Below are positions 6,910-61,600 of a stretch of 64,000 bases of DNA, in pieces. The notes under the pieces were generated by a model. It saw only the letters and a list, made by a program, of their open reading frames with translations. It had not been told where the DNA came from and made no database searches. The stretch spans positions 124,001 to 188,000 of the forward strand of contig NBIV01000101.1 of the NCBI GenBank assembly GCA_003194525.1. Direction: 5' to 3'. Every line of letters begins with the position of its first letter. Positions within the stretch are counted from its first letter, which is position 1. The position numbers were made by a program, and so were the translations under genes. Source of the DNA: Gracilariopsis chorda. Taxonomy: Eukaryota > Rhodophyta > Florideophyceae > Gracilariales > Gracilariaceae.

Positions 6910-6926
6910 GCGGCACGCACGCGCTG

Positions 6927-9402
6927 GAGTCACTGGCGCAGTAGGACGTGAAGTGGTGTATATGTGATTGCGACTGCTGACAAGCAAAAGGCAGTTCAAC
7001 AGCACTTAGGTGCCGTATGGAGTCACTGGCGCAGTAGGACGTGAAGTGGTGTATATGTGATTGCGACTGCTGACAAGCAAAAGGCAGCTCAACAGCACTT
7101 AGGTGCCGTATGGAGTCACTGGCGCAGTAGGACGTGAAGTGGTGTATATGTGATTGCGACTGCTGACAAGCAAAAGGCAGCTCAACAGCACTTAGGTGCC
7201 GTATGGAGTCACTGGCGCAGTAGGACGTGAAGTGGTGTATATGTGATTGCGACTGCTGTGACAAGCAAAAGGCAGCTCAACAGCAACTAACATTGCAACG
7301 TAGGTCTCAATAAACGAAAGTTTATATATATATATATCATTGTCACTTTGTGTGGTAGTGCACTTCAAGTCCGTTCTAGCACTTAGTTGCCGTATGGAGT
7401 CACTGGCGCAGTAGGACGTGAAGTGGTGTATATGTGATTGCGACTGCTGTGACAAGCAAAAGGCAGCTCAACAGCAACTAACATTGCAACGTAGGTCTCA
7501 ATAAACGAAAGTTTATATATATATATATCATTGTCACTTTGTGTGGTAGTGCACTTCAAGTCCGTTCTAGCACTTAGTTGCCGTATGGAGTCACTGGCGC
7601 AGTAGGACGTGAAGTGGTGTATATGTGATTGCGACTGCTGTGACAAGCAAAAGGCAGCTCAACAGCAACTAACATTGCAACGTAGGTCTCAATAAACGAA
7701 AGTTTATATATATATATATCATTGTCACTTTGTGTGGTAGTGCACTTCAAGTCCGTTCTAGCACTTAGTTGCCGTATGGAGTCACTGGCGCAGTAGCACC
7801 TCAAGTGGTGTATATGTGATTGCGACTGCTGTGACAAGCAAAAGGCAGCTCAACAGCAACTAACATTGCAACGTAGGTCTCAATAAACGAAAGTTTATAT
7901 ATATATATATCATTGTCACTTTGTGTGGTAGTGCACTTCAAGTCCGTTCTAGCACTTAGTTGCCGTATGGAGTCACTGGCGCAGTAGCACCTCAAGTGGT
8001 GTATATGTGATTGCGACTGCTGTGACAAGCAAAAGGCAGCTCAACAGCAACTAACATTGCAACGTAGGTCTCAATAAACGAAAGTTTATATATATATATA
8101 TCATTGTCACTTTGTGTGGTAGTGCACTTCAAGTCCGTTCTAGCACTTAGTTGCCGTATGGAGTCACTGGCGCAGTAGCACCTCAAGTGGTGTATATGTG
8201 ATTGCGACTGCTGTGACAAGCAAAAGGCAGCTCAACAGCAACTAACATTGCAACGTAGGTCTCAATAAACGAAAGTTTATATATATATATATCATTGTCA
8301 CTTTGTGTGGTAGTGCACTTCAAGTCCGTTCTAGCACTTAGTTGCCGTATGGAGTCACTGGCGCAGTAGCACCTCAAGTGGTGTATATGTGATTGCGACT
8401 GCTGTGACAAGCAAAAGGCAGCTCAACAGCAACTAACATTGCAACGTAGGTCTCAATAAACGAAAGTTTATATATATATATATCATTGTCACTTTGTGTG
8501 GTAGTGCACTTCAAGTCCGTTCTAGCACTTAGTTGCCGTATGGAGTCACTGGCGCAGTAGCACCTCAAGTGGTGTATATGTGATTGCGACTGCTGTGACA
8601 AGCAAAAGGCAGCTCAACAGCAACTAACATTGCAACGTAGGTCTCAATAAACGAAAGTTTATATATATATATATCATTGTCACTTTGTGTGGTAGTGCAC
8701 TTCAAGTCCGTTCTAGCACTTAGTTGCCGTATGGAGTCACTGGCGCAGTAGCACCTCAAGTGGTGTATATGTGATTGCGACTGCTGTGACAAGCAAAAGG
8801 CAGCTCAACAGCAACTAACATTGCAACGTAGGTCTCAATAAACGAAAGTTTATATATATATATATCATTGTCACTTTGTGTGGTAGTGCACTTCAAGTCC
8901 GTTCTAGCACTTAGTTGCCGTATGGAGTCACTGGCGCAGTAGCACCTCAAGTGGTGTATATGTGATTGCGACTGCTGTGACAAGCAAAAGGCAGCTCAAC
9001 AGCAACTAACATTGCAACGTAGGTCTCAATAAACGAAAGTTTATATATATATATATCATTGTCACTTTGTGTGGTAGTGCACTTCAAGTCCGTTCTAGCA
9101 CTTAGTTGCCGTATGGAGTCACTGGCGCAGTAGCACCTCAAGTGGTGTATATGTGATTGCGACTGCTGACAAGCAAAAGGCAGCTCAACAGCACTTAGGT
9201 GCCGTATGGAGTCACTGGCGCAGTAGGACGTGAAGTGGTGTATATGTGATTGCGACTGCTGTGACAAGCAAAAGGCAGTTCAACAGCACTTAGGTGCCGT
9301 ATGGAGTCACTGGCGCAGTAGCACCTCAAGTGGTGTATATGTGATTGCGACTGCTGTGACAAGCAAAAGGCAGCTCAACAGCAACTAACATTGCAACGTA
9401 GG
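6927..9402. repeat. Tandem array of 93-bp and 191-bp units
   Basis: Units begin with GAGTCACTGGCGCAG. Three 93-bp units start at 6927, 7020 and 7113. Ten 191-bp units start at 7206, 7397, 7588, 7779, 7970, 8161, 8352, 8543, 8734 and 8925. A 93-bp unit (9116), a 95-bp unit (9209) and a partial unit (9304) close the array. The 191-bp form is the 93-bp form plus a 98-bp segment with AATAAA and a (TA)n tract. Units 7206-7588 carry GACGTGAAG; units from 7779 to 9116 carry CACCTCAAG, three G-to-C changes in nine bases. The minus-strand frames of 75-87 codons are repeats of one unit and 191 is not a multiple of three, so this is not a repetitive protein. The array starts 17 bp after the channel stop codon, so it may lie in its 3' UTR. 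Confidence 0.95.
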
Positions 9403-10027
9403 TGTAGGTTGTCACGTAATTGTGTAGTGCAGCGAAAGAGCGCAACCGCCCTTTGCTTATAAGGGCAGCCCCATTCCATCTCAATAAACCAAAGTATATA
9501 TATATATATATATATCATTGTCGTTCTAGCAGCGACAACGTTCATCGTTGCTCATACTCCTGTGTACGTGTCATCTTGCGCCATTATCACTTGGTTGCTC
9601 AACTATGTCAACACGCACGAGCCCGGCGACTGTAAGCAACAGCCTGTGCCGCGCGCGCGCGCTGGCGCAAATTTACAGACGCGTGGGCGCGCGTGACGCG
9701 TCGCGCGCCCTCCGCTGGCGCCGCCGCGCGTGACCATGCCGGCGCAGCGAGCGCGCGCGTGCGCGCCGCGTGCCGCCGTGTAACCTCAACGCGCCACTCC
9801 CTTTCAGGCGCCCCGTGCGCGTGCACCGCTCTCTGCAGTAGACCCCCCCCTGCCCTCCGCCCTCCGCCCTCCGCCTTCCGCCCTCCGCCCTCCCGCTTAA
9901 AAGCCCCGCCCTCCCTCCTTCCAAACACCCCTCCCCCTCCCCCCGCCCCGTCCCAACTCAAAGCCAACCACCTACTCCTGCCATCCACTACCACCACCAC
10001 TCCCCTACCCCCCCCCCCCCTCCCCCC
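9403..10027. other. Array remnant and GC/CT-rich upstream region of the zinc-finger gene
   Basis: At about 9479-9520 there is a diverged copy of the 98-bp segment (TCAATAAACCAAAGTATATA then TA repeats), so the array once reached further. From 9640 the sequence becomes GC-rich and then strongly C-rich on the plus strand up to the ATG at 10028. This pyrimidine tract is probably the promoter or 5' leader of the zinc-finger gene. No gene is supported. Confidence 0.6.
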
Positions 10028-16944: not shown

Positions 16945-18324
16945 CTAGTACTTGTCGAAGCTAACACCGCTGTTACTCTCCAACACTCTTCGTTCCGCAT
17001 CCACGTAACCCACCCGCTTGCACCCCGCTAAACGCTCTTGTAACCATCGGCACACCGCGTCGCACGACTTGTGAGACACGACCATTGCCATCCCCATTCC
17101 CATATTGAAAGTTCTCCACATTTCAAAGTCACTGATTTCTCCACTGGCTTGCATCCATTCAAACTCTGGCAACACTTCTAACGCGTCATCAATAACAAAC
17201 CCAATATCCGCTCCAAGCCGAAGTAGATTCGACAGCCCGCCACCAGTGATATGAGCAATACCATGAATATCATCGTACGAACACGGTCCGTCACCCCCTC
17301 TACACGTCTGCAACAAATCCACCACGGGGTCCACATAGATCATCGTTGGATTGAGCAACACCTCTCCAAGTTGCACATCCCCATCACTGTGACGCCACAG
17401 TCCGTCAGCACGCGGCCCGATGTCAAAAGGTGCAGCATCGTCCAGCGATAACCCACTTTTCATCAAAATCTTTCTTACCAGCGAGAATCCATTTGAATGA
17501 ATGCCAGAAGATGGCAGTCCAATGATTGAATCGCCACTCGTTACCCGTCCTTCAAGTTGCATGCCTTTTGGTAACCAGCCTAGCGCCGTTCCACTCACAT
17601 CGATTTCGCGTACCATATCTGGTAAACTCGCCGTCTCACCGCCACACAGACTTACACGTGCTCGTCGACAAGCTTCGCCCAAACCGCGTCCCAGCGCAGC
17701 CCACGTTTCCGCGTCCGGACGAGGTGCGGCAATATAATCTACAAACGCTATTGGTTCGGCACCAATACATAGCAAGTCGTTCACGTTCATCGCCATGCAG
17801 TCTATTGCAACCGTATCATAAACATCCATCTGCGCAGCGAGTAGTAGTTTGCTTCCCACTCCATCTGTGCAAAGCGCAAGCAAGTTGTCACCGAATTCAA
17901 TTAGTCCGGAAAACCCTCCGGAATGATCAACTGGCGCCCCGAAAGTACCGGATTTGCGGTGCGCAACAGGGCCCAGAGCTGAAATCAGCGCTTTAACACT
18001 TGCTGATTCCGTGTCTATGTTCACGCCGGACGACGCGTAAGTTAACGATTCGTTCTTTGATGTCATGCTACATGTTCTGCGACTTGTGCACTTTATTGAT
18101 GCCCTGCGCCGCGCGCTGCAGAACACATTGTTTGTACGTAGGGTAAATCGTGGAGTTAGTGGAAGCTGCGCAAGGAAGGCTACATTCACCATCTTTCTTT
18201 CCTTGTGATGCCAACGGCGAACGCCCCATCCGTCCCACCCGAACGGTGATGACGTGTTTAGCATCGCCTCGTAACCTGAACAGCCAGCCGTCTTTTTTCT
18301 GCTAGGAGATCCAGATCTGTACAT
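16945..18324 (-). CDS. purM: Phosphoribosylformylglycinamidine cyclo-ligase (AIR synthetase), archaeal-type
   Basis: The conserved core begins at residue 87 of this frame (ATG at 18066, TYASSGVNIDTESASVKALI) and runs to the end, about 373 residues. The upstream part has no acids and ATGs at 18324 and 18192, so a plastid or mitochondrial leader is likely; the exact start is open. Core landmarks are LCTDGVGSKLLLAAQMDVYD, DCMAMNVNDLLCIGAEPIAF, SLCGGETASLPDM, IIGLPSSGIHSNGFSLVRK and HITGGGLSNLLRLG. The enzyme closes the imidazole ring of AIR using ATP, step five of purine synthesis. It is a single-domain protein, not the GARS-AIRS-GART fusion of animals. The wording of the motifs resembles archaeal PurM more than the plant or bacterial type. 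Confidence 0.9.
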   Translation of the reverse strand: MYRSGSPSRKKTAGCSGYEAMLNTSSPFGWDGWGVRRWHHKERKMVNVAFLAQLPLTPRFTLRTNNVFCSARRRASIKCTSRRTCSMTSKNESLTYASSGVNIDTESASVKALISALGPVAHRKSGTFGAPVDHSGGFSGLIEFGDNLLALCTDGVGSKLLLAAQMDVYDTVAIDCMAMNVNDLLCIGAEPIAFVDYIAAPRPDAETWAALGRGLGEACRRARVSLCGGETASLPDMVREIDVSGTALGWLPKGMQLEGRVTSGDSIIGLPSSGIHSNGFSLVRKILMKSGLSLDDAAPFDIGPRADGLWRHSDGDVQLGEVLLNPTMIYVDPVVDLLQTCRGGDGPCSYDDIHGIAHITGGGLSNLLRLGADIGFVIDDALEVLPEFEWMQASGEISDFEMWRTFNMGMGMAMVVSHKSCDAVCRWLQERLAGCKRVGYVDAERRVLESNSGVSFDKY

Positions 18325-18345
18325 ACAACGGTACAACGGTACATA
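18325..18345. promoter_or_regulatory. Tandem ACAACGGTAC motif in a divergent promoter
   Basis: Two overlapping copies of ACAACGGTAC lie between the PurM and mitochondrial ribosomal protein genes. AACGG is the core of Myb sites, including plant mitosis-specific MSA elements. Function is inferred from recurrence and position only. Confidence 0.35.
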
Positions 18346-21756: not shown

Positions 21757-23040
21757 CTACTCAACGTAGAGGTATTGGTCCAATCCAATATTTAGGGAGT
21801 TTGCCATTTTCAAGGCCTCATCTCTAGCAATGTTGCAACGGTACTTGGGTTCAGACAAGAGATCCGCCCCTGTTTCACAGGACAGGAAGCCTAGCGTTAC
21901 AAGCGTAGAAACTTGTACAAGCAAGCTCGTTGATATTACAGCTGAGACGCTTTCAGGAGAATCTGCCCCCCGTTCCGATGCAAAGACGTTAGGGGCTATA
22001 GAAGCAAAGATTGCTAGCAGTCGTTCCAGTACAAAAGCCCGATCCTGAACCTCGTTCCTTTTTGCCTTAGAACTCCTGCTTCGACCGGTTCTACTTGATG
22101 AAAAGAAACGCATATCGTGTTGCGGCGGATTTCGCGAAGCAAGAAAAGCAGCGATGAGCATCGTACGTGCAACAGTGGACAGTGACGATTCGTATGCTTC
22201 ATCAGCCCTACCAGCGTTTGAGGCTTGTGGTAGGGACACTGAGGTGTCTGCGTTTCCATTATTACCCTGTATATCCCGCAAACGTAACCTGCGGCGGTAC
22301 AGTGAGTGAAGTTCGGCAGCTAAGCGATGTTGAATGAGATTAAAAGCGGCGATATGGTTCTTTTCGCGAACCTCTTGTAGGTAGTCTGGGAATAGCTTGT
22401 TGCATACAGCAGAAAGCTCTCGAATATCGGTGGTTGTCTTGTACATGACGCCAACCACCGCTTTGACGTATCCGGGATAGAGGGTTTCAGCAGTTTCTGC
22501 ATGTTCTGTGCCTGCAAAGTCCATGCTACTGCAAAGGGACTCAACAATTTCATCCTCAGTCCATGGAGGCAAGAAGACTTCAAGCGGCTCTGGTATGGAA
22601 AGGTTCAAATTGAAGCGGAAGGCGTCCCACGATAGGCGACTAAGGAGGACGACGCGAAACATTTTGTCTTCCACCAGCGATGGCAAAGAGAGAATTGTGT
22701 GTAGGGCAGAGGAAGAGAAAGCCGATGAGACGAGTCTCTCCGCACGAGAAAACAAAAACACAGTTGGTGGATAAGGTTTGCCACCAAGGCGAGATACAAG
22801 AAGGGACGGATCAGCTGTGAGACGCTCTCCAAGAATCGCAGAGTATAGATGGCGGTCGGTGTGATTAAAGACGCAATCAATGTGCCGCACATGAAAACCT
22901 TCCGGTAGCGCGTCTTCGATGATTTCTTGAGTAACCACGGACGGTGGTCCATAAACGAAGATCGCACGTGGGTATGGGGAAGTTACAGTGGCGCCAATTT
23001 CACGCAACCTCGACTCACGCCAGTCAGAGTAAATTGACAT
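21757..23040 (-). CDS. ORC5: Origin recognition complex subunit 5
   Basis: The only ATG that opens the domain is at 23040 (MSIYSDWRES), giving 427 aa. An AAA+-like N-terminal domain includes AIFVYGPPSVVTQEIIEDAL, in the Walker A position but without the GKT/S lysine, then VFLFSRAERLV and a sensor-like FRVVLLSRLSWD. The ORC5 hallmark is in the C-terminal half: MLIAAFLASRNPPQHDMRFF, then an ending EPKYRCNIARDEALKMANSL. ORC5 is part of the six-subunit complex that marks replication origins and loads the MCM helicase. Loss of the Walker lysine suggests no ATP binding, unlike ORC5 in yeast and humans, which bind ATP. No introns. Confidence 0.85.
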   Translation of the reverse strand: MSIYSDWRESRLREIGATVTSPYPRAIFVYGPPSVVTQEIIEDALPEGFHVRHIDCVFNHTDRHLYSAILGERLTADPSLLVSRLGGKPYPPTVFLFSRAERLVSSAFSSSALHTILSLPSLVEDKMFRVVLLSRLSWDAFRFNLNLSIPEPLEVFLPPWTEDEIVESLCSSMDFAGTEHAETAETLYPGYVKAVVGVMYKTTTDIRELSAVCNKLFPDYLQEVREKNHIAAFNLIQHRLAAELHSLYRRRLRLRDIQGNNGNADTSVSLPQASNAGRADEAYESSLSTVARTMLIAAFLASRNPPQHDMRFFSSSRTGRSRSSKAKRNEVQDRAFVLERLLAIFASIAPNVFASERGADSPESVSAVISTSLLVQVSTLVTLGFLSCETGADLLSEPKYRCNIARDEALKMANSLNIGLDQYLYVE

Positions 23041-23993
23041 TGTCGAGACCCCAACTTCCTCTGTAGCAAGTGCCCAGCTCACGGGTATGCTCAGACTTCA
23101 CTGAGATCCTTTTACCACCCCTTTCGTTCGTTTGCCAAGCTGCAGTACTGCTAAATATCTGTAGATGTTGGTCAGCGTTCCGGGCGAAGACTGGCTGCGG
23201 AAAAATACATCGTTCACAAAAGGAGAGGAGGGGCTAACGGAGGCGTTTAAGCGCAACTAGTAGGTTGCTGGGTGTCGTTGATTAAGAGTAACGATATCGC
23301 TCTCAAACACTCGTTGCATGCAGAGAGACCAAGCACGTACGCAAATACGGCGCGTAGTGGATTGGAATAGTGGCTGGCCGCTGTTCAATGTCGCAGTGGG
23401 CGAAGTGATAGCTTGGAGGAGTTACCAAACCGCAAAATGAATAAAAACATGCAGCCAGACGGGCGATTTGGAGAAGACGAAATAACTTTTACGGAAGTGC
23501 AGTATTGTAGTGTGTGGTCGTGATCTGTAACCTCAGACTGCAGTTGAGCACAAAAAGGTTCGACTTGCTAGATAGTAGTGGCGCTGCTTTGCAAAACAGG
23601 CAGCACGGAGCATGCTGCAATGCTCCCATCGAGATAACATTAACAGTCTACAAAGGACGCGCGACATGGCTTGTCTGCATGGTCACGTTTTACAACCCGA
23701 CAAACCGCAAACACGAGTCAGAGGCTTGCAAGAGGAAAAAGTGTCGTCAAACCGCCAGTGAAGAAAAGAAAACGACGCCAGGAGAACAAAGTACTCTTGG
23801 TACGTACATGCGTTCTCGCCCAAACGCGACGTAAAAGAGCTTATAATATTTCTTTGGGAGAAAAAAACGAATGCAATCCTAGTACGGTGCGAGCGTGAAG
23901 AGATGAGTAAATGAGAGCACCCGGTACGGGGGTGGTGGTCCCAAATCACACGGCCCATGTCATTGCATGTGTTGCGTGTCAGAGTCGAAGGAT
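23041..23993. other. Intergenic, no supported gene
   Basis: About 950 bp lie between the ORC5 start and the 3' end of the peroxidase gene. Short frames on both strands are ordinary in number and composition, and none continues as an exon that I can link to a known family. A GGTACGTACATG lies near 23808. Confidence 0.5.
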
Positions 23994-33126: not shown

Positions 33127-33246
33127 TACAAAAGTGTCCGGCCAGACACTGATGCGAGCTTGTCCAGCGATACTTGTAGTGAGCTTCCACGAGCGTAGGC
33201 GGAACCGAGTTTGAATGAACGACTCAGCTTGTAGTGAGCTCCCACA
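33127..33246 (+). repeat. Short dispersed repeat R1, copy 2
   Basis: The repeat begins TACAAAAGTGTCCGGCCAGA and ends GTAGTGAGCTCCCACA. Inside, CTTGTAGTGAGCT occurs twice (near 33173 and 33228). It is nearly identical in reverse to 48681-48800. Size about 120 bp. Confidence 0.85.
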
Positions 33247-34407: not shown

Positions 34408-35508
34408 ATGGCTCCACCCGTCGCCTCTGAAATCGCCCACGACTCCAAACTCGTGCTGCGCCGTCTGTGCACGCGTCTAGACAACAAGTCATGTTTCGAC
34501 TGCTCCGCAAAGAACCCCACCTGGGCCTCCGCTCGCTTCGGCGTCTTCATCTGTCTGGACTGCTCGGGCAGTCACCGCAACCTCGGCACGCACATAACCT
34601 TTGTGCGCTCCGCCTCAATGGACACATGGAGCAAACAGGACCTGGCCCGCATGGTCAACGGCGGCAACGCAAAGGCGCGTTCGTACTGGAAGGACCACGG
34701 ATGGCATGATTTTTCCTCCTTCCATGCCGATAAGTACACCGGTCGCATCGCCAATGCGTACAAGGCTCAGCTGGAGACACTTGTCGCAAACAACTCCGTT
34801 TCGCAACCCACCTCTCACCAACTCGCAAACGCCGTCGCCGCCGTCTCGCTTTCCGAGCCCCGTCCGTCAGAGAAGCCCGCTAGTCAAGTCGCTCAACAGC
34901 CTGCGCCCGCGTCTGAACCGCTCACTGCCCAACCCGCCGCTCCGAAACCGAAGCGCGCCACCCCGATAACACTTTCCGCCCCCGTTTCAGCGGATGTGTC
35001 TATCACCGCCACCCGTCGCCCCACAAGAAAGGCCGCCGGGCTCGGCGCAAGACGGAAGGGCTCCGCAACCAGACGAGCCACTACTAACATTGACTGGTCC
35101 AAAGTCGGATCAGACGTTCCCCCCGGTCCTCCAATTCCCAAGCTGCCGGCAAAACCCAAGGTGCAACCACAGCTCAGGAACCCCTCTCCAACCGCGATGA
35201 GCGCCGAGCAATTTGCGGATCGATTCAAGGGCAAGAAGGCTATATCATCTGACGATTTTGCTCCGCAGAGTATCGCCAGCGCTCGAACCGACATTTCTAA
35301 CCGCTACGCAAACGTGTCTTCATTGTCGTCTTCGGATATGTTCGTCACTAACGGTGCGAGACCGTCCTGTGCGCATGCGCATCAGGGCGAGGATGGAATT
35401 GTTGGTATTGCTGACGACTTCATTCGCGCCGCTTCGGAAGGCGTTCAGCAGGCTGCTGACGAAGTCTCTACGGCCTTTTCCGATTTTCTTAACAAAGGGT
35501 ACGCCTAG
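34408..35508 (+). CDS. ArfGAP2/3-type (GLO3-like) GTPase-activating protein
   Basis: The 366-aa intronless protein has an ArfGAP domain in residues 15-130. The zinc finger is C29, C32, C49 and C52 ([19 protein letters not shown]) with the catalytic arginine R57. STWSKQ-like [20 protein letters not shown] is typical of the class. After the domain there is a Pro/Ala-rich linker, a basic [17 protein letters not shown] patch, and a C-terminal helix with [16 protein letters not shown], similar to the GLO3/ArfGAP2/3 regulatory motif. These proteins act on Arf1 in the Golgi to ER COPI pathway. The final 100 residues are Ser-rich and helical. Assignment to GLO3 rather than another ArfGAP is moderately firm. 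Confidence 0.88.
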
Positions 35509-36029: not shown

Positions 36030-39000
36030 CTATTGCGACGGAACTGATACGGTGCAGCTGGTGATTTCCTCAAGAAGCTCCACTACACGGGCCGGCGAGT
36101 CGAGGAAGTAGGAAGCCGATGTCACAGGGCTTCCAACACGGCACGTGAACACTCGATTCGGCGCACGGATACCAATGGCTTCCAGTCGTGTTCTGTCTTT
36201 CAGCATATCAAACATGCCCTCATCCGTCTTATCGTCACCAACGCACAAGACAAAATCAATATAAAGAGGCTCTCGAGCTTGGCCGTTGTCAAAAGTACTA
36301 GCTTTCTCGTTACTCTTGATATGCTCAATCGTGCGAGTCACAGCAGTCGTCTTGTCTACGCCCTTCGGTCGCACTTTGATCCACCTGCGGTGAGAATCTG
36401 TCTGGAGGTCCACGTTAAGCCGCTGAAGCAGAAAAGACTCCAGATGTTCAAACAAGTCCCTCGCCTGCCACCTTCCAAAATCAGTGTCAGAGTCGATGTA
36501 GTGCCACGTTACAGTAACGTCACCCTCCTCAATCACAACCCCGGGCGTGCGTTCATAGAAATGCTGCATAGCAGGCTTGACCAAGGACTTCCACGGTCTG
36601 CTTGTGGTGAACTCTCCATTTTGCATGCTTTCAGAACTGGATACAGATGCAAAAGAGCTAGAGGTGTATCGGTGGTGCCCCTCTTGCAACGGGACATCCT
36701 TCCTGTCCTTCTTGGTACCATTCGTCTCACCAAACACGTCTGGCACTGAGCTGTTGGGGGAAGACTTCTTTCGTTTCTGATCGTCATCTTTCAGAAGCTG
36801 TGGTTGCCGTTTTTGCTCGCTGTCGGCGGATGTCGAATTCAGTGAAGTATGATCGGAGCCTGTCGGTTGAGAATTTGCACTCCGATTCAGTTGAAAGTCG
36901 TGCCCGGAATTGTCACGGAAAAGTGATGTCCACACGGTATCACCCGGAGCTCGGAAAAATGCTCCGTCTTCGGCCGCGAGGTATATGCTGAGATTACCCA
37001 ACCACTTGTGCACTGTGTTCGGATCACGACTGGATGTGACAAGTACATAGTTGCGTGGACTCGACTCTTTGATGCTTTGAATCAAATCGATGATATTCTG
37101 AGCGGGGGCACCAAGCTCGGTAATAGCCTGGAATGGCACCAGAGTACCGTCCAGATCCAAAATGAAGAGTGCTGCCCTACTATTCAGTTTGGCCCAAGAA
37201 ATGTCTGGAGAGGCACGGACAGAGTCACCCTTGGCCGTGGGTGTGGGCAGGTTGTTCCTCAAGGCGTTCTCCATCTTTTGATCGGAGAATCCCGGAAGGC
37301 GAACTGCAGGGCCAAACGTATTGAGCAGTACGCTGGACAGCTCAGAAGGTGAATGGCCTGCAATCCCAGATGCCTGCAACGAAGACCGAACAGTTCCGGA
37401 GGGTACCTGAGAAGTGGTACCAGCCATGCCAAGGTATGCATGAATGACAGTGGGAATATCGAGAACGGGCGTGGCCACACCACTGCCACTGGCGGTAACC
37501 CTTTCACACTGTTCCAGATCCTCGAGAAAGTTGAGGCCCCATAGTTTGGCGGTATGCGTAGTAACAAAACTGTACGCCGCTTCATTGCGCATGGCACGTT
37601 CCTTGTCGTCCATGGTAAGTGCCTTCTTGATCTTTTCGACCATTTCATCCACGTTCCACGGATTGACGTGCAGGGCGGTGGAGAACGATTGGGCCGCTCC
37701 GGCAAATTCGCTAATGACAATAGCACCCTTGTACGCTCCATGCTGACACACTGTCCATTCGTGAGGAATGAGCGCCATGCCGTCGCGAATAGGGCTGACA
37801 ATGCAGGCATGGCCGATGCTCATCAGGGCGTACAGCTCCATGGGATCAAGCTCACCGTTAATGTAATGCACGGGGTTGAATGAGAAAGTACCAAACAAGG
37901 AGTTGATACGACCAACAAGCCCATTGACCTGCATCTGCTGCTGACGAAAAGTGGTAGTGCTATGCGCCTGTCCAGGAATGGTAGCCACTTGAATGAACAT
38001 GACCTTTCCTCGCAGCTTGGGGTTATTCTGCAACAGCTGTTCAAAAGCGAGAAGCTTCAAGGGAATACCGCAGAAACTGTCGTCCAGTCTATCCACGCCG
38101 ACCAAGATGTGCAAACCCTCAAAGCGGGCACGCAGCTCTGCGATGCGCGACTTGACGGGCTTGGAGGACACAAAGTTTCGCAACGAAGAGACATCAATTC
38201 CGGCGGGATAAATGGCAAGTTCACAACGACGACCTGTAGAAGGGTCCGCCTCAACGTAACTAGGAGTTCCATCAATCCCCAACAACCTTGAACAAGCACT
38301 GACAAACTGCTTCGAGTAATCATACGAGTAAAAGCCAATAACGTCGGCGCCAATGACGCCGCGCAAAATCTGCGTGCGGTACGGAAGAATGCGGAACAAT
38401 TCTGCGGACGGAAACGGGGTGTACAGGAAAAAGCCGATTTTAGCGTACCAAAGGCTCTCTCTCAGCAAGCTGGGCAGCAGCATTAAATGGTAGTTGTGCA
38501 CCCAGATAAGGTCTCCATCCTCGTATATTTCGCTGATGGTTTCGACGAAACGCTGATTGACGAATCGATAGGCGGCGAAATACTCGTCCAATTCGGAGCC
38601 TTTCTTATCGACACTGCCGTAGTCATAGTGCAACAAGCGCCACAGAATGTGCTCACAGAAGAAGTAGAAACGGTCCATGACCTGCGGTTCAACAGGGAGT
38701 GGGACTGCGACACTGCGCGATTCAAGGACGTGATGATGACGGTCGCGGTTGGCGGAGTATCTTGAGGTCCTTCGTTTGCGGTAGGTCTGTTCGACGGGCG
38801 GGTCATCAAAGGCGACGCAACGGTCATTGAGGGTGGGCGTAGTCGCGTTGGACAGCGATGTGGGGGAAGAATTGGACGGGTTGGGATTGACGGAACCGAC
38901 CCAGACGATGGGCAGATTGGTTGCGTCACGAAGGGTGAAGATGGCGTTCGGAGGAAGTGCATTGTCGAAGAGCTGACGTGGAATGGAAGTTCGTTCCCGA

Positions 39001-39452
39001 GCGGTGGGTAATCGTAAACTGACACTGATAATACGACGACGCATAGGCTTGTCTGTAGACGAAGAGAGCTGTTTCGAAACGGCATGCAGAGCGGAATGAT
39101 GTGCGACATCATCGCCCACAGAAGAGGTGCGTCGTAACCTTCGATTCCTCTTCCTGGAAGCGCGCTGTCTAGCGAGACGCAGTTGATCACGAACGGCTTG
39201 AATCTCATCAAGCAGCTCAGCCTCAGCGACTCGCAAGTAGGCGCGATCGGGGTCGGCAGCGGCAGCAGTTGGCGAAGGCCTTAAAAACGGGCGCTGCGGA
39301 AAGGCCGCGGCGGTAAGGAGCGGGGAATGCGGTCGCGCAAGATCGGAGTGTTGCGGAGAAGTGTTGTGAAGATCGAGTGGGGACGGGTGGGAAGGGGTGG
39401 AGGGGGTGGGGGGACTTTGGGGGTTTGCGGGCGGTTTGGGAGGACGCGACAT
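36030..39452 (-). CDS. Two-domain trehalose-6-phosphate synthase/phosphatase-like protein
   Basis: The intronless 1140-aa protein has a Pro/Ser-rich N-terminus (about 110 residues) and then a glycosyltransferase family 20 domain: LIWVHNYHLMLLPSLLRESL, GFFLYTPFPSAELFRILPYR, GVDRLDDSFCGIPLKLLAFE and PIRDGMALIPHEWTVCQ. A haloacid-dehalogenase phosphatase domain follows near residues 770-1130: LFILDLDGTLVPF, VTSSRDPNTVHKWL, a RWIKVRPKGVDKTTAV lysine segment and LCVGDDKTDEGMF. The phosphatase motifs are complete. In the transferase domain the catalytic Asp of WVHDYH is Asn, and the H of FLH-xPFP is Tyr, as in plant class II proteins thought to lack synthase activity. A role in trehalose 6-phosphate removal or signalling is plausible. 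The protein is probably cytosolic. Confidence 0.9.
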   Translation of the reverse strand: MSRPPKPPANPQSPPTPSTPSHPSPLDLHNTSPQHSDLARPHSPLLTAAAFPQRPFLRPSPTAAAADPDRAYLRVAEAELLDEIQAVRDQLRLARQRASRKRNRRLRRTSSVGDDVAHHSALHAVSKQLSSSTDKPMRRRIISVSLRLPTARERTSIPRQLFDNALPPNAIFTLRDATNLPIVWVGSVNPNPSNSSPTSLSNATTPTLNDRCVAFDDPPVEQTYRKRRTSRYSANRDRHHHVLESRSVAVPLPVEPQVMDRFYFFCEHILWRLLHYDYGSVDKKGSELDEYFAAYRFVNQRFVETISEIYEDGDLIWVHNYHLMLLPSLLRESLWYAKIGFFLYTPFPSAELFRILPYRTQILRGVIGADVIGFYSYDYSKQFVSACSRLLGIDGTPSYVEADPSTGRRCELAIYPAGIDVSSLRNFVSSKPVKSRIAELRARFEGLHILVGVDRLDDSFCGIPLKLLAFEQLLQNNPKLRGKVMFIQVATIPGQAHSTTTFRQQQMQVNGLVGRINSLFGTFSFNPVHYINGELDPMELYALMSIGHACIVSPIRDGMALIPHEWTVCQHGAYKGAIVISEFAGAAQSFSTALHVNPWNVDEMVEKIKKALTMDDKERAMRNEAAYSFVTTHTAKLWGLNFLEDLEQCERVTASGSGVATPVLDIPTVIHAYLGMAGTTSQVPSGTVRSSLQASGIAGHSPSELSSVLLNTFGPAVRLPGFSDQKMENALRNNLPTPTAKGDSVRASPDISWAKLNSRAALFILDLDGTLVPFQAITELGAPAQNIIDLIQSIKESSPRNYVLVTSSRDPNTVHKWLGNLSIYLAAEDGAFFRAPGDTVWTSLFRDNSGHDFQLNRSANSQPTGSDHTSLNSTSADSEQKRQPQLLKDDDQKRKKSSPNSSVPDVFGETNGTKKDRKDVPLQEGHHRYTSSSFASVSSSESMQNGEFTTSRPWKSLVKPAMQHFYERTPGVVIEEGDVTVTWHYIDSDTDFGRWQARDLFEHLESFLLQRLNVDLQTDSHRRWIKVRPKGVDKTTAVTRTIEHIKSNEKASTFDNGQAREPLYIDFVLCVGDDKTDEGMFDMLKDRTRLEAIGIRAPNRVFTCRVGSPVTSASYFLDSPARVVELLEEITSCTVSVPSQ

Positions 39453-48680: not shown

Positions 48681-48800
48681 TGTGGGAGCTCACTACAAGC
48701 TGATTCGTTCATTCAAACTCGGTTCCGCCTACGCTCGTGGAAGCCCACTAAAAGTATCGCTGGACAAGCTCGCATCAGTGTCTGGCCGGACACTTTTGTA
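48681..48800 (-). repeat. Short dispersed repeat R1, copy 1
   Basis: The reverse complement matches copy 2 almost completely, from TACAAAAGTGTCCGGCCAGA to GTAGTGAGCTCCCACA, with a change GTAGTGAGC to TTAGTGGGC in the middle. It ends where the solo LTR's target duplication starts (GTAGC at 48798-48802). Confidence 0.85.
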
Positions 48801-48802
48801 GC

Positions 48803-49628
48803 TGTGGTGCAACGCCCCAAAGGGGAGAAACACCGAAAGACGTTCGGGATCTTTCCTCCGTGGAGGTGAACCCAGTTGGGTAGAGCCCCTCTAGGGGTGG
48901 CACGGCAGCGCCAGTTTGTAAGACCGAGGCCACCCTTCGCGACTAGCGCAAGAGGGTTTAGGACAAGAATTGGTATCCGCGAGAGCGGGAATGCGTCCTA
49001 GCCAGAGGTAGGTTTCCACGTAAGTGGGGGTGTGTGAGCGGATGCGCACACGAGAGCCGCGGATAGCGGGAGGTGCTACCCTAAAAAGGGGAAGAAGGAA
49101 GGGCGAAGAGGAGGAAGAGAGGACGAAGTGAGTCGCGAGAGCGACGGGGGCGAACGGCGATGCCGGTAACAATATCCCTATACAGGGCGAAACACCAATG
49201 CAATTGGAATAATATGACTCCCAGTGATGGGTCCCTTTAGATGTTCAAGGGGGTTAGATGTCCCGTGGTTCACGGCGTTTCCCTCCAAGGAGGAGTACAG
49301 CACGCGCGCAACCGGTAACAACTAGAGCCAATTCCCCAGGTTGGGGTCCCTTGTTGAGAAAGGTTTACTGGTGCGACGGCAGTGCGCCGTCGCACTAAGT
49401 ACTAGCTTCCCAGAAATCGGTGTAAAAATAATAAATAAAATCAACTAAAATACTCCACATTTCGTGGCAACATCCACTACTGTGGCTAACCGCCAATTGA
49501 CCCAAAACCGTGTCCCACGTGTCCATATCCACCATTGTGGGGCGTAGTTCATATACACACTACACAACTGATAATATCGGGAAAGCATTCAAGTACCAAG
49601 AATCCCTCCCTGAGGGCGTTGCACTTCA
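48803..49628 (+). mobile_element. Solo LTR copy A, 826 bp, TSD GTAGC
   Basis: The element begins TGTGGTGCAACGCCCC and ends GGGCGTTGCACTTCA, so it has the 5'-TG...CA-3' of LTRs, and 5-bp direct repeats GTAGC lie at 48798-48802 and 49629-49633. The terminal GTGCAACGCCC is an inverted repeat near each end. It is 826 bp long. An AATAAATAAAA stretch lies at about 49428. Numerous small hairpins occur, for example GTCGCGAGAGCGAC (49132-49145), CCGCGAGAGCGG (48977-48988), CCACGTAAGTGG (49016-49027) and a 10-bp stem at 49371-49395. No gag or pol is adjacent, so it is a solo LTR. The short minus-strand frame (VAPPAIRGSRVRIRSHTPTY) is shared with copy B but is not known to code. Confidence 0.85.
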
Positions 49629-51880
49629 GTAGCCCAGTCGTCTTACATAAACGATACTTCTGTGGGGGCCATCACAAAACAGTGACGCAGGTGGGCCAAA
49701 CTTAGCAATAAAGTAGGCTAAAAAGGGTGTCCTCGTAGCTGAAAGCCCCGTAGAGATGAAAATGATAAACAGAAAGAGCGAACAAATGGAAACGCAGGGA
49801 CCAAAAGGACTCAACCTGCTATGCAAATATGAAAACAAAAGGGAGACCAAGATTCTCAATCCCAGAAAACTTCTTCAAAACTTCTTGAAACGGCGCGCTA
49901 CTAAAGACTTATGTCAATGGCCACTAGGAGTCAGACTCCCGGCTTCCGGTCAGACACTCCGAATATGAAGCGATTTCTGCAGCCTATTCACTTCTGCGCT
50001 AACCAAAAGCAGGCGCGTAAAATCCTTACAGTGCTTCCAAAGGAGAGCTACTAACAGCGGGATATGCTTTTACTCTGTACCCAATCTGGCTCTCTGCAGA
50101 GAAGGCTGCACGGCACGTCGCCTGCGGACAGCTTCCCGTCTAGCACTTCCGTCCGGAAATCGCCAGGTCTTTCGAACGACAGCTTTATCTCATCAAAGCT
50201 CCGGTGGTGCTCCCAGATGACAGAAGCATCTTTGGTACACACTGCCTGTCTTTCTCCCACGCTTGAAGCGCTTCAACCGGCAATTTCCCACCCCAAGCAT
50301 GCACGTAGCGGCAAACGCCTCACTATAATAAGATGATGGTTGAATGGTTGATTAAAAGAGTGGGAAAGGTTGGAGAGTGAGTTATATATATGAGTTTGAT
50401 GTTGAGCTGGGTCCACACCAAATTCTGGGCCTCAACTTGCCCTTCTATAGCGTTTAAAAGCACTTGAAACAAGGCTGGAACGCATTACTACTTTGTACTT
50501 ACTTTTTTGTGCGTCTAGGTTACTCCATTGGCTTCTAGCAGCCTCTGGAGCTGCATACTAACCAACAACACTCCGTCTTTTGGTGCCACCGTCACTTAAA
50601 TACAGTAACACTGCTTGGCCAGCGAAGCAAAGAATGCTCTAGGAGCCCCTGGAATGCTCTAGGAGCTCCTGGAATACTCTACACGTGTGTTCCAGCAGTG
50701 CCAGAACATTCTACACCTTTCGCGACCAACAACGCCCATGAAACCTTCGTGGGTGTTTCATGAGCACAGCGGCACTCGATTGTGTAACTAAGAGCTGAAT
50801 ATAGACGGCGTGGCCAACTTACAGCCGTCTTCCAACCAGATAACGACGGCTCAACCTCTACCACACCGTGATACCCATTGGAACGAGTCGTAATGGGCGA
50901 TTTCCATGCGTCCAATAGCACTCCAAGATAGCCGCTCTCCGCCACTTACCGTTAGGGGAACGGCTTTCAGCACCTCTTGTGCAAACTTCCAGATGACAAG
51001 GACATATTTGCATCAATTGTAACCGACTTTTACCTGCCATCACATGACGAAGTTGTGAATCTGACTCTAGCCGCTCATTAGAACGAGCCACAGGGTCCAC
51101 ATATTAGACATTTGGATATAGAATAAATAGACTGAACGTTCCCACACTCTCCCAAGGAGAAAGACGCGGAGAGAGCGACAAGCACTACATGGTAGCATCG
51201 TTGCGGGCATACGACAGGCCTGACAGCGATTATAGAATATACGGTATCGATGATTGTATCGATAAGTAGACAGCGGCCGCCGCTGCAACAGCACACGCAA
51301 GAATGTTTACCGTTCAGGGACGCTGCAGCATTCACTGCTTAACAGCACCCAACCTTCGAGCACAGAGAAGCACGTCGCACTTCTCTCGGGACGCCCGGTT
51401 TCGTTAGCCACGCCTTGAGCGCGCCTTGCCCACTCTTTCTTGTCGTCCCCAAAATTCGCAGACATCTCGTTGCAACTGTCTTTCTCCGCCCTGGCTTCGC
51501 GTTTTTTCTAGCAAGCCGAAATCTCTCTCTCTTAACTAAAGCGTCACCGACGCTGGCCTGGGCGCGATCGGAAGCAAACTGAACACCAAGTTTTCGCTTT
51601 TGGACGACGTTTTTCTCTTCTCGCGCTGCCTCTCTCATACCACCTTCCTGCGCGTTTTTTGGCGCACTTCTACGCTGAAAAAACCTCGGTTGGGGCCTCT
51701 GGCTTACGTTCTCTCCCCCCCATCCGACCGGTCTGCCTCTAAAGCACTGTACTACAGCTCTCGGTTTTGGCTTGCGTTCCCTTCCCTCTTCGACAGTTTC
51801 TACCATACTGCCGCCGTAGTTGTCCTCTATTTGCCGCCAAAGCACCTATTACCGAACAACGGCTTCTGGCTTAGGCCTTT
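49629..51880. other. Repeat-island spacer, no supported gene
   Basis: Scattered short frames, direct repeats such as AGGAGCTCCTGGAATRCTCT (about 50640-50680) and AT-rich tracts occur, without a recognisable protein. The minus frame 51339-51845 (168 aa, rich in Arg and Lys) runs into the following minisatellite and has no family likeness. I treat it as non-coding. Confidence 0.4.
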
Positions 51881-58640: not shown

Positions 58641-61600
58641 TGCCGGTTGCCGGCCATGCATAGAAAGCCTTTTACCAGCCCCAGCAGATGTTCAAGTAAT
58701 TTTGCACTTGTTTCGGAGGTTTTGGGGGCTTTTATGCATGAGGAGCAGACCCGTGATAATGAATTCACAGCCCCCCGAAATGCCACGAAGGACAGAGGTA
58801 ATGCAAGGTTCAAGAAGAACCGGAGTGAGAATCATCATCACAAGAACAATGAGCAAAAGCCGTTTTCTTTGATAAGGGATTCGAGATCAGATCCGAGTCC
58901 CATATTACATGAGGGTAACCCTATATTGTCTGGAGGGATTACACCGGAAATGAAGTTATGCGAACTCCTAAACATCACTTTCAAGCCGTATAAACCAAGA
59001 AGTACTATCATAGAGGATAGAGTCATGAGTGCATCAACTCAAAACCAATAGTATGTTCGTGGACGCTGTACGTACAGGACATGAATAAAGAAAACATTGA
59101 TCTCACGTTTGACTTACTGGAAGACGAGTCACCGCCCACTATAGGGATGGATATCAAACGATATAGCATCACAAACTACGACACCACCCCACCTACGCTG
59201 ACTTTGAAACGAGCTATGGATATAAAACCGCAATTATTACAGCTATACTTATCTGGAAGTTAGAATTTTGGTATGAGAGAAATGCTGACAGTCGTACCAA
59301 GCAAGAGAGCGTTGATTTCTAAGGCAGTGGCAAAATGAGACCCGAGACGTTAGCCAAAAGACTACATCGATTAACCCATGCCCCAACGGAGGAGATCATG
59401 GAGATATGCAGGAGAGTTGACCATGATTACGATGAACTAGAAGAAAAAATTAAGAGGCTCGGCTCTAATTGCGTCATATGTTCCAGCTCACGACCCCCGA
59501 TACCATCCAAGAAGATATCGATAAATCACGTCAACCTCAAGTGCAACGCCCTCAGGGAGGGATTCTTGGTACTTGATCGTTTTCCCGATATTATCGGTTG
59601 TGTAGTGTGTATATGAACTACGCCCCACAATGGTGGGTATGGACACGTGGGACACGGTTTTGGGTCAATTGGCAGTTGGGCACGGTAGTGGATGTTGCCA
59701 CGAAATGTGAAGTATTTTACTTGATTCTATTTATTATTTTCACGCCCATTTCTGGGAAGCTAGTACTTAGTGCGACGGCGCACTGCTGTCGCACCAGTAA
59801 ACCTTCCCCAACAAGGTACCCCAACCTGGGGAATTGGCTCTAGTTGGTACCGGTTGCGCGCGTGCTCTACTCCTCCTTGGAGGGAAACGCCGTAAACCAC
59901 GGGACATCTAACCCCCTTGCACATCTAAAGAGGCCCATCCTTGGGAGTCATATTATTCCAATTGCGTTGGTGTTTCGCCCTGTATAGGGATATTGTTACC
60001 GGCATTGCCGTTCGCCCCCGTCGCTCTCGCGACTCACTTCGTCCTCTCTTGCTCCTCTTCGCCCTTCCTTTTCCCCTTTTTAGGGTAGCACCTCCCGCTA
60101 TCCGCGGCCCTCGTGTGCGCATCCGCTCACACACCCCCACTTACGTGGAAACATACCTCTACTGAGGATCACACCCCGCTCACCCGGATACCGATTCTTC
60201 GCCTTCACCTCCCTGCGCAAGTCGCGACAGGTGTCCCTGGTCTTACAAACCGGCTTCGCCGTGACGTATCTGGGAGGGCTCTACCCAACTGGGTTCACCT
60301 CGTGAGAGGAAGATCCCGAACGTCTTTCTGTGTTTTTGCCCTTTGGGGCATTGCACCCACACAACCAGGCTTTTAACGTGGACACTCAGTTGGACTACAC
60401 GTTCTATACTATCCGAGGCACTAAATATACGGTGCTGCATATCTTCGATGCAGGAAGGTGCTACTCCAAAGCGTGCATCACGAGAGCTCGAGAACTACAA
60501 ACGAGTATCGCGGTAATAGAAGTCGAATCGTTGAACAGGCATGGAACACCAGAATCCCTTTCTGCAGACGATGTAATCAATAAATAGGACATGAAACGAT
60601 TCTTAACCGGAAGAGGCATACAGTTCAAACCGCACCCAGCTCGACTCCATAACAAGACCGGGATCGTAGAGCGAGAGAACGGAGTGGTTAAAAGAATTCT
60701 AGAGACTCTGAAACAGGAACCCACACGGGACAATAACAACACCATCTTGTCCAGAGCAGTTTTTCTTTCGAATTGCTTTACCGGGTAGAAGCTGATGAGA
60801 TCTTTCGAGCTTGCTAAAGTACACGCTCCTTCGATACTTCGGGTGCCACGTGGGATGGTCCCTCAAGACCTAATGCGCGCCTATACCCAACAGACAGCCA
60901 CACGTGCACTACAATGGCTCCTGAAATCTCACAACCATTCTTCTCTAACATCAAAGTCTATAAAACCCAGGGACTAAGTTCTGTTCTTCTACAGAACCAC
61001 AAAGCAGAACGAACCCGACGAGTGGATACCGGGTTTCTTAGTACGAGCACTACAACGCTACGTGGAGATAAAACGACAAGGTGGAAAACATATCCCAAGG
61101 ATCGCATACGAAGACTTAGGGTTCAGACCCAACTCCGATCTTGCTCGCGAACTAAGTGAGGGGCTAGTGTAAGACTAAATAAACCTTAATTTGGGTCCTC
61201 AATCTGGCAATGACGTTGAAATGGAAACGGAGGCAACACGTTCCTTAATGACCAGCTATATGTGGCATCAAGAAAGCATCTGTAAGAACCTGGGCGAATA
61301 CATGGACGAGCTGATGAAGAATGGAGAACTGAGCGATGCAAAAGAATTGAATTCCAACTAATAGGCGATACTGAAAGAGATCCAAGGAGTAATTGGATCC
61401 CGACAAGTTTGCGCACGGGAATTATCATTTGCACCTCCACGGGTACTTAGGAAAGCAGTAGAGAAGGACCACGACGCCAACTTGATCCATGCATGTCAAG
61501 AAGTATTAAAAGACTCCGTTCCTTTCAATGCCAATATCCTCCCTTCGCATACGGTATACAAAGTGAAGGAGGATGAAGAACGGATTTGGAAGCTGAAAGC

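What the first reader, a model, noticed from the sequence alone, without database searches (positions are those of the whole stretch)
48803..49628. Hairpin-dense LTR: array of small stems with GNRA-like loops
The 826-bp copy A contains an unusual series of perfect short hairpins close together: CCTCCGTGGAGG, CCGCGAGAGCGG, CCACGTAAGTGG, GTCGCGAGAGCGAC, CGGCGATGCCG, CCCTATACAGGG, CCAATGCAATTGG, CCGTGGTTCACGG, a 10-bp stem at 49371-49395, and more. Several have GAGA or GTAA loops, which are GNRA-type. Its ends are also inverted (GTGCAACGCCC). Ordinary LTRs do not show this. The transcript may have a defined fold, for example for packaging, translation or a ribozyme. This could be a novel structured element family.
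Basis: partly seen in the sequence, partly recalled or inferred. Interest (0 to 1): 0.8.

Follow-up and report, generated by a model that had tools for sequence, protein, structure and literature searches.

The report
Retrotransposons tiled with tiny hairpins
The stretch is one end (an LTR) of a jumping gene in what appears to be a red alga, and the whole jumping gene, including its protein-coding part, is packed with very short, perfectly paired hairpins of a fixed shape that evolution has kept, for a reason not yet known.

Summary
The hairpin array is real: 27 perfect hairpins (stem 4 or more, loop 3-5) against 8.65 +/- 3.01 in shuffles, 0 of 500 as many. The stretch is a solo LTR (TG..CA, target duplication GTAGC) of a Ty3/Gypsy element whose genes lie on the window's minus strand. 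The signal is not confined to the LTR: sampled Gypsy elements, coding part included, carry about three times the expected short hairpins; six Copia loci and host DNA of the same genome do not. The geometry is narrow: stem 4-5, loop 3-4, foot pair C(5')-G(3') enriched 7.9-fold in one family; another family has a different foot. Between subfamilies, G/C stem positions are conserved and loops turn over; private changes of inserted copies fall evenly on stems, loops and linkers. Transcript-strand G.U pairs are not favoured, unlike in an rRNA control, so a specific RNA fold, ribozyme or GNRA code is not supported. Best reading: selection for local folding of the element's single-stranded genome (RNA or cDNA) during replication; the cause is inferred. 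Ten literature searches listed nothing like it.

The parts
48803..49628 (-). Copy A: solo LTR of a Ty3/Gypsy element (strand given is the element's sense strand); 22 non-overlapping perfect hairpins (stem >=4, loop 3-5)
   Evidence: TG..CA ends and duplication; sense strand from ORFs of paired elements and primer-site side; hairpins
48798..48802 (.). Target-site duplication GTAGC, left
49629..49633 (.). Target-site duplication GTAGC, right
48807..48817 (.). Inverted LTR end GTGCAACGCCC
49614..49624 (.). Inverted LTR end, reverse complement of GTGCAACGCCC
48855..48866 (.). Hairpin CCTC-CGTG-GAGG; stem kept, loop TCAC in B and GTTA in C
48977..48988 (.). Hairpin CCGC-GAGA-GCGG
49016..49027 (.). 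Hairpin CCAC-GTAA-GTGG
49132..49145 (.). Hairpin GTCGC-GAGA-GCGAC; GTCAC/GTGAC arms in C
49155..49165 (.). Hairpin CGGC-GAT-GCCG
49176..49187 (.). Hairpin CCCT-ATAC-AGGG; CCTT/AAGG in C (compensatory)
49195..49207 (.). Hairpin CCAAT-GCA-ATTGG; changed in C
49220..49231 (.). Hairpin CCCA-GTGA-TGGG; CCGA/TCGG in C (compensatory)
49263..49275 (.). Hairpin CCGTG-GTT-CACGG
49371..49395 (.). Longest stem of the LTR, 10 bp, loop AGTGC; one pair of the 10 mismatched in C
59537..60361 (+). Copy B: second solo LTR, inverted, other subfamily, 90.6% identical over the aligned part; strand given is the element's sense strand
59532..59536 (.). Target-site duplication of copy B (GGTTG read on the minus strand)
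60362..60366 (.). Target-site duplication of copy B (GGTTG read on the minus strand)

Best explanation
Copy A is a solo LTR of an abundant Ty3/Gypsy retrotransposon of a red alga. The whole element is tiled with very short hairpins of one shape: 4-5 Watson-Crick pairs, a 3-4-nt loop and, in the families A and L092-96, a C(5')-G(3') foot. Shown: the tiling, its geometry, its absence from the six Copia loci and the host DNA examined, conservation of G/C stem positions between replicating lineages, and free decay after insertion. Inferred: the hairpins are selected because the element's genome must fold locally while it is single-stranded inside the particle, as genomic RNA or as minus-strand cDNA, so that it can be bound, compacted or protected. 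The foot rule, which differs in one family, points to recognition by a nucleic-acid-binding protein, most simply the element's own Gag (a CCHC-like motif is present).
For: Copy A hairpins 27 vs 8.65. One element's internal region: 219 hairpins of stem 4-5, loop 3-4 vs 69.7, C-G foot 167 vs 22.0. Loop spectrum peaks at 3-4, none at 0 or >=7. Six Copia loci 0.9-1.1, host segments 0.7-1.1, six other Gypsy loci 2.6-2.9. In intact pol frames 69 and 78 hairpins vs 32.8 +/- 5.2 and 29.0 +/- 4.9 after synonymous-codon shuffling. A vs C fixed differences: stem 28/213, linker 95/435, loop 30/83, but private changes of 38 A copies 0.0227, 0.0203, 0.0195. Perfect 2.8-3.5x with transcript-strand G.U 0.99-1.26x, in the range of other mismatches (1.12-1.23x); rRNA control the reverse. 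Foot rule differs in L097. CCHC-like motif in 3 of 4 elements.
Against: No direct evidence for any protein, particle or molecule. The stem effect is at G/C sites only; A/T stem sites change as much as linkers. Pair-breaking changes outnumber compensatory ones (other 10-15, compensatory 4-6 in six A-C and B-C comparisons). Codons in L097-only stems have lower amino-acid identity (0.59 vs 0.73 outside stems), so some hairpins came with protein change. The single whole-LTR RNA fold is relatively more stable on the sense strand (z -4.10) than the antisense (z -2.44), 20 shuffles each, which favours a transcript. Stability of a 4-bp stem may simply forbid G.U, so its lack is not proof of DNA.
Confidence: 0.4

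Rival explanations
1. Selection acts on the transcript alone: genome-wide ordered RNA structure (as in some RNA viruses) that hides the RNA from host RNA surveillance or tunes translation, with density and not position mattering.
For: Synonymous choice builds hairpins; places turn over between families; sense-strand whole-LTR fold z -4.10 vs -2.44 antisense.
Against: Transcript-strand G.U not above other mismatches in four families, while it is in rRNA; 100-base windows equal on both strands or slightly better on the antisense with RNA parameters (-0.63 vs -0.78 in A); fixed geometry and foot are not what energy alone would choose.
Confidence: 0.2
2. A mutational process makes the hairpins: template switching during reverse transcription copies one arm into the other, giving perfect strand-neutral arms without selection.
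For: Perfect Watson-Crick, strand-neutral arms are what template switching makes in other systems (PMC8794818, PMC8604942, passages); lower amino-acid identity in L097-only stems.
Against: Arms should change at least as fast as linkers between lineages, yet change less (28/213 vs 95/435). Narrow stem length and C-G foot are not predicted. None of 433 compared loops is inverted, but this is weak: PMC8604942 saw inversions only with arms over 9 bp.
Confidence: 0.17
3. Double-stranded palindromic binding sites for a dimeric DNA-binding protein.
For: C-C..G-G feet at a fixed spacing.
Against: Inner arm bases vary widely yet stay complementary, which a fixed site does not need; CC-N(8-9)-GG without inner complementarity is only 0.8-1.8x against 2.0-2.8x overall in A_C100, C_L101 and L096.
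Confidence: 0.05
4. Chance or base-composition artefact.
For: Stems are G+C-rich (about 71% in the hairpins counted).
Against: Dinucleotide and codon shuffles, host, Copia and rRNA controls do not give it.
Confidence: 0.01

Closest known systems
Ty3/Gypsy (Metaviridae) LTR retrotransposons, chromovirus-like
   Same: TG..CA LTR, 5-bp duplication, TGG-type primer site, RNase H, integrase; a chromodomain match below cut-off
   Different: Yeast Ty3 RNA is described as a mosaic of structured and dynamic regions (PMC11381356, abstract and section 29 read); no uniform short-hairpin tiling is described there
[quoted passage not shown]
   Same: Structure spread over a whole genome, overlapping coding sequence (PMC3950689, abstract read)
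   Different: Here pairs are Watson-Crick only, geometry is fixed, a foot pair is preferred, no transcript-strand asymmetry in 100-base windows
Template-switch (quasipalindrome) mutations
   Same: Perfect short inverted repeats, compensatory changes (PMC8794818, PMC8604942, passages read)
   Different: Here arms are conserved between lineages, of 4-5 bp and with a preferred foot
Stem-loops in retroviral R regions and near the PPT
   Same: Stem-loops inside or beside LTRs (PMC3601003, passages read)
   Different: Here 22 non-overlapping hairpins fill one LTR and the density goes on through the element

Membership tests
Ty3/Gypsy LTR retrotransposon | TG..CA LTRs with short target duplication | tested here: met
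   57 distinct long LTR copies: 18 exact and 5 four-of-five duplications beside the LTR, 17 internal on one side, 14 on the other, 3 neither
Ty3/Gypsy LTR retrotransposon | Primer-binding site after the 5' LTR, polypurine tract before the 3' LTR | tested here: met
   TGGTCTCC.. three bases after the LTR, the word 931 times in the genome vs 26 for the reversed control; G-run on the other side. Which tRNA: not tested
Ty3/Gypsy LTR retrotransposon | RT and RNase H before integrase | tested here: met
   RT_RNaseH, then H2C2 and rve above cut-off in one family-A copy; RVT_1 not matched in the 8 pieces scanned, but YLDD found upstream in 4 of 4 copies; RVT_1 above cut-off in L092-L097
Chromovirus | Chromodomain at the integrase end | tested here: inconclusive
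   PF00385 at 21.0 bits, cut-off 25.1; present in many homologues listed
Known structured RNA or ribozyme | Match to an Rfam family | tested here: not met
   0 matches in the window at gathering scores
GORS | Excess RNA folding energy over shuffles across the genome | tested here: met
   100-base windows: z -0.63/-0.78 (A), -0.39/-0.45 (L096), -0.33/-0.54 (L097); Copia 0.04/0.27, host -0.17/0.00; the effect is larger with DNA parameters
GORS | Pairing suited to the RNA strand (G.U accepted there) | tested here: not met
   Sense G.U 1.17, 1.26, 1.10, 0.99 vs other mismatches 1.18, 1.18, 1.23, 1.12 in four families; antisense G.U 1.19, 1.58, 1.16, 1.51; rRNA 1.23 vs 1.09
Template-switch product | Arms changing at least as fast as linkers | tested here: not met
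   A vs C stem 28/213, linker 95/435
Template-switch product | Inverted spacers | tested here: inconclusive
   0 of 433 loop comparisons, but inversions are known only with longer arms

The most novel reading that the evidence does not exclude
Gypsy elements of this alga carry a family-specific structural code: their single-stranded cDNA is armoured with roughly one C-G-footed mini-hairpin per 40 bases, whose foot pair is read by the element's own coat protein, so that a retrotransposon is selected as folded DNA and its protein code is written around the hairpins.
Probability: 0.25. Interest if true: 0.92.

Novelty: categorically new. Interest (0 to 1): 0.8.

Why it matters
Whole retrotransposon genomes, coding part included, follow one micro-hairpin rule that composition does not explain and that Copia neighbours lack. 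If selection is confirmed, this is a nucleic-acid-level constraint on LTR elements that my searches did not find described, and the many copies in this genome give natural replicates for asking which single-stranded stage of retrotransposition needs folding and which protein reads it.

Tried and rejected
LTR-specific fold, ribozyme, GNRA contacts: not supported. A group II intron look of the GTGCAACG end was considered from memory and dropped once LTR ends and duplications were clear. Coding on the + strand: three frames of a piece of L031 gave no Pfam match; the minus strand did. Relatives elsewhere: two viral-contig scans confirmed none, so Gypsy elements of other species are untested. The tandem array at 6400-9500 is also hairpin-rich (2.7x) but without the C-G foot (0.5x). 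Within-copy deviations at 23 A hairpins (G.U 134, A.C 115, other 123) show no strand preference; I take them as decay after insertion. Regular spacing: in copy C100 hairpin centres 16-27 bases apart number 93 against about 65 expected and 28-35 apart 15 against about 43; the sister copy C358 shows the same more weakly, C_L101, L102, L096 and L097 little or nothing, so I do not build on it.

Literature searches: (open-licence PMC papers only; result lists capped). A genome paper of the suspected host was not seen.

Full report
What it is. The 826-base stretch starts TG, ends CA and is flanked by GTAGC on both sides. A search of the window's own genome (91.3 Mb, 1081 contigs) scored only its 40 best of 1905 first-look candidates and listed 42 matches: 40 near full length at 95-100% identity, one at 85%, one fragment. 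Searches with two other subfamilies, B (copy B of the window) and C (from L021), listed 41 and 43 matches. Among 57 distinct long LTR copies in fetched loci, 18 have an exact 5-bp duplication, 5 a four-of-five one, 17 are followed by TATCCCC.., 14 preceded by ..CCACT, 3 neither. Four pairs start 8.8-10.7 kb apart; their LTRs are 96.4-98.5% identical. Read in that sense, a TGG-type primer site follows three bases after the LTR; its word occurs 931 times in the genome against 26 for the reversed control. So this is Ty3/Gypsy; the window holds two solo LTRs, A and, inverted, B.

Host. A window ORF for ORC5 is 62% identical to Gracilaria domingensis, 64% over part to Agarophyton chilense and 81% to an unnamed protein.

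The observation. Copy A holds 27 perfect hairpins (stem >=4, loop 3-5) against 8.65 +/- 3.01 in 500 dinucleotide shuffles, none as many.

It is not an LTR feature. Non-overlapping hairpins per 500 bases are 10-20 along the internal stretches printed for three elements, 5.4 +/- 2.4 over the window. By loop length, four internal regions give 2.9-3.9 times expectation for loops of 3 and 4, 1.8-2.5 for loops of 2 and 5, 1.5-1.9 for 1, 0.9-1.0 for 0 and 0.5-1.4 for 7 or more; 30 kb of host DNA gives 0.8-1.2 throughout, 9 kb between the two LTRs 0.7-1.5. The four elements are one family with LTRs about 96% identical to copy A, so they are not independent.

Geometry. In three elements of that family the outermost pair is C(5')-G(3') 651 times against 82.4 in shuffles; G-C, A-T and T-A are 1.3, 1.5 and 1.5 times expectation. 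For C-G-footed hairpins enrichment is 20-fold for 5 pairs with loop 3, 9.6 for 5 with 2, 8.6 for 4 with 4, 5.3 for 4 with 3, 5.1 for 5 with 4; stems of 3 lie at 0.7-1.7; stems of 6 and 7 rest on a handful each. Controls in the same genome, same call: six Copia loci (four of them near the top of one long list of similar hits) 0.9-1.1; five host segments 0.7-1.1. Six other Gypsy loci 2.6-2.9. Five of these six are about 99% identical, one family, with the C-G foot 5.4-7.2-fold; the sixth, L097, about 73% identical in the longest aligned block, has all four foot pairs in excess (A 25, C 27, G 19, T 27 against 8.7, 12.8, 10.0, 10.3) with C preferred one pair further in. So three Gypsy families share the tiling, one with another foot rule.

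Coding sequence. L096 and L097 have open pol frames of 1129 and 1119 residues in the stretch fetched, 71% identical. They hold 69 and 78 hairpins (stem 4-5, loop 3-4); 100 synonymous-codon shuffles give 32.8 +/- 5.2 and 29.0 +/- 4.9. Starts fall equally in the three codon phases. In segments where every residue is the same in both families L096 has 24 against 8.2 +/- 2.9, elsewhere 45 against 24.9 +/- 4.6: synonymous choice suffices to build them. Only 27 of 113 L096 hairpins (wider definition) have one at the same place in L097, against 15.1 +/- 3.8 (maximum 25) for shifted controls; 4 of the 27 are identical in sequence. Density is kept, most places turn over. Codons in stems of both families have fewer synonymous differences (0.37) than codons in neither (0.62); but codons in L097-only stems have lower amino-acid identity (0.59 against 0.73), so some hairpins came with protein change.

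Selection. Individual LTR copies of A and C differ at 0.16 of stem, 0.40 of loop and 0.26 of linker positions; A and B at 0.05, 0.115, 0.11. Hairpins of A have one at the same place in C in 0.58, of C in A in 0.71, shifted controls 0.09. Fixed differences A vs C: stem 28/213, linker 95/435, loop 30/83 (Fisher p 0.008 for stem and 0.008 for loop against linker). Stem against linker in the other comparisons: C vs A p 0.064, B vs C 0.005, A vs B 7/216 against 31/474, p 0.10. The stem effect sits at G/C sites (A vs C 18/161 against 47/200); A/T stem sites change like linkers or more. Compensatory pairs number 4-6 in six A-C or B-C comparisons and 0-2 in A-B; pair-breaking changes ('other') 10-15 in those six, G.U of the + strand 1-6, of the - strand 2-7. 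Examples: CGGC/GCCG to CGAC/GTCG, CCCT/AGGG to CCTT/AAGG, CCCA/TGGG to CCGA/TCGG. By contrast rare private changes fall on stems, loops and linkers at 0.0227, 0.0195, 0.0203 in 38 A copies, 0.015, 0.0154, 0.0106 in 15 B copies, 0.0265, 0.0241, 0.0248 in 10 C copies. Stems are guarded while the lineage replicates, not after insertion. In pol, A to three C copies: stems 0.147-0.164, linkers 0.244-0.257; among C copies stems 0.061-0.096, linkers 0.065-0.080.

RNA or DNA. If a transcript fold were selected, G.U of the sense strand should be accepted. In four sequences from different (sub)families perfect hairpins are 2.8-3.5 times expectation, one-mismatch hairpins with sense G.U 0.99-1.26, with antisense G.U 1.16-1.58 (1.58 and 1.51 in two of the four), with other mismatches 1.12-1.23. 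E. coli 16S and 23S rRNA give perfect 0.80, sense G.U 1.23, antisense 1.01, other 1.09. With C-G feet (any foot in L097) the excess is 441 perfect, 46.7 sense G.U, 88.9 antisense G.U, of which C.A read on the sense strand alone is 72; eight other mismatch types 7-31 each. In 100-base windows family A scores -0.63 (sense) and -0.78 with RNA parameters, -1.20 on both strands with DNA parameters; L096 and L097 are weaker in the same direction; Copia and host lie between -0.17 and 0.39. Planted Watson-Crick hairpins give the same contrast, -0.45 and -0.75, whereas rRNA scores -0.41 on its sense strand only and near zero with DNA parameters. This shows strict pairing without strand preference; it does not prove DNA. 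Against this, one fold of the whole LTR as RNA has z -4.10 on the sense and -2.44 on the antisense strand, and -4.72 as DNA on the latter, 20 shuffles each.

Mechanism. Shown: tiling, geometry, restriction to Gypsy among what was sampled, and conservation during replication only. Inferred: that a single-stranded stage needs local folding, and that a protein reads the foot. A CCHC-like motif lies upstream of the protease motif's place in 3 of 4 elements; nothing tests its role. Template switching explains perfect arms in other systems but not slow arms, fixed length and foot; the absence of inverted loops (0 of 433) is weak evidence, because inversions are reported only for longer arms.

Novelty. 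Ten searches of open-licence papers list nothing of the kind; the yeast Ty3 RNA study reports a mosaic of structured and dynamic regions. The element is a new member of a known family; the tiling failed a defining test of each known kind that I tried.

Noticed in passing
7187-9205 (191-bp unit) with a 93-bp repeat at 6908-7258 and 9097-9356: Tandem array, also hairpin-rich (2.7x) but without the C-G foot (0.5x).
   Followed up: partly
48681-48800 and 33127-33246: A 120-base repeat, 97.5-98% identical and inverted, ends two bases before copy A's left end; it does not continue on the other side of the LTR.
   Followed up: partly
L097: A Gypsy family with the same hairpin density but another foot rule: all four foot pairs in excess, C one pair further in.
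   Followed up: partly
family A element C100, outside the window: Neighbouring hairpin centres cluster 16-27 bases apart and avoid 28-35 (93 vs about 65; 15 vs about 43); little or nothing of this in C_L101, L102, L096, L097.
   Followed up: partly
one-mismatch hairpins of four Gypsy sequences: C.A on the sense strand (T.G on the antisense) is the commonest tolerated mismatch, while A.C is not; unexplained.
   Followed up: no
49425-49445: A/T-rich tract (AATAATAAATAAAATC on +) shared by the LTR subfamilies; on the sense strand it could be core promoter; not tested.
   Followed up: no
L049 (C104), L021, L025, L083: LTR copies of different subfamilies lie side by side or head to head within a few hundred bases.
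   Followed up: no
C52, C98, C367 and many more contigs: Many Copia loci with long open frames (often 1345 residues); the six examined have no hairpin excess.
   Followed up: partly
36030-39452, 21757-23082, 16945-18336, 34408-35508 and others: Host genes: trehalose synthase/phosphatase, ORC5, AIR-synthase-related, ArfGAP.
   Followed up: no
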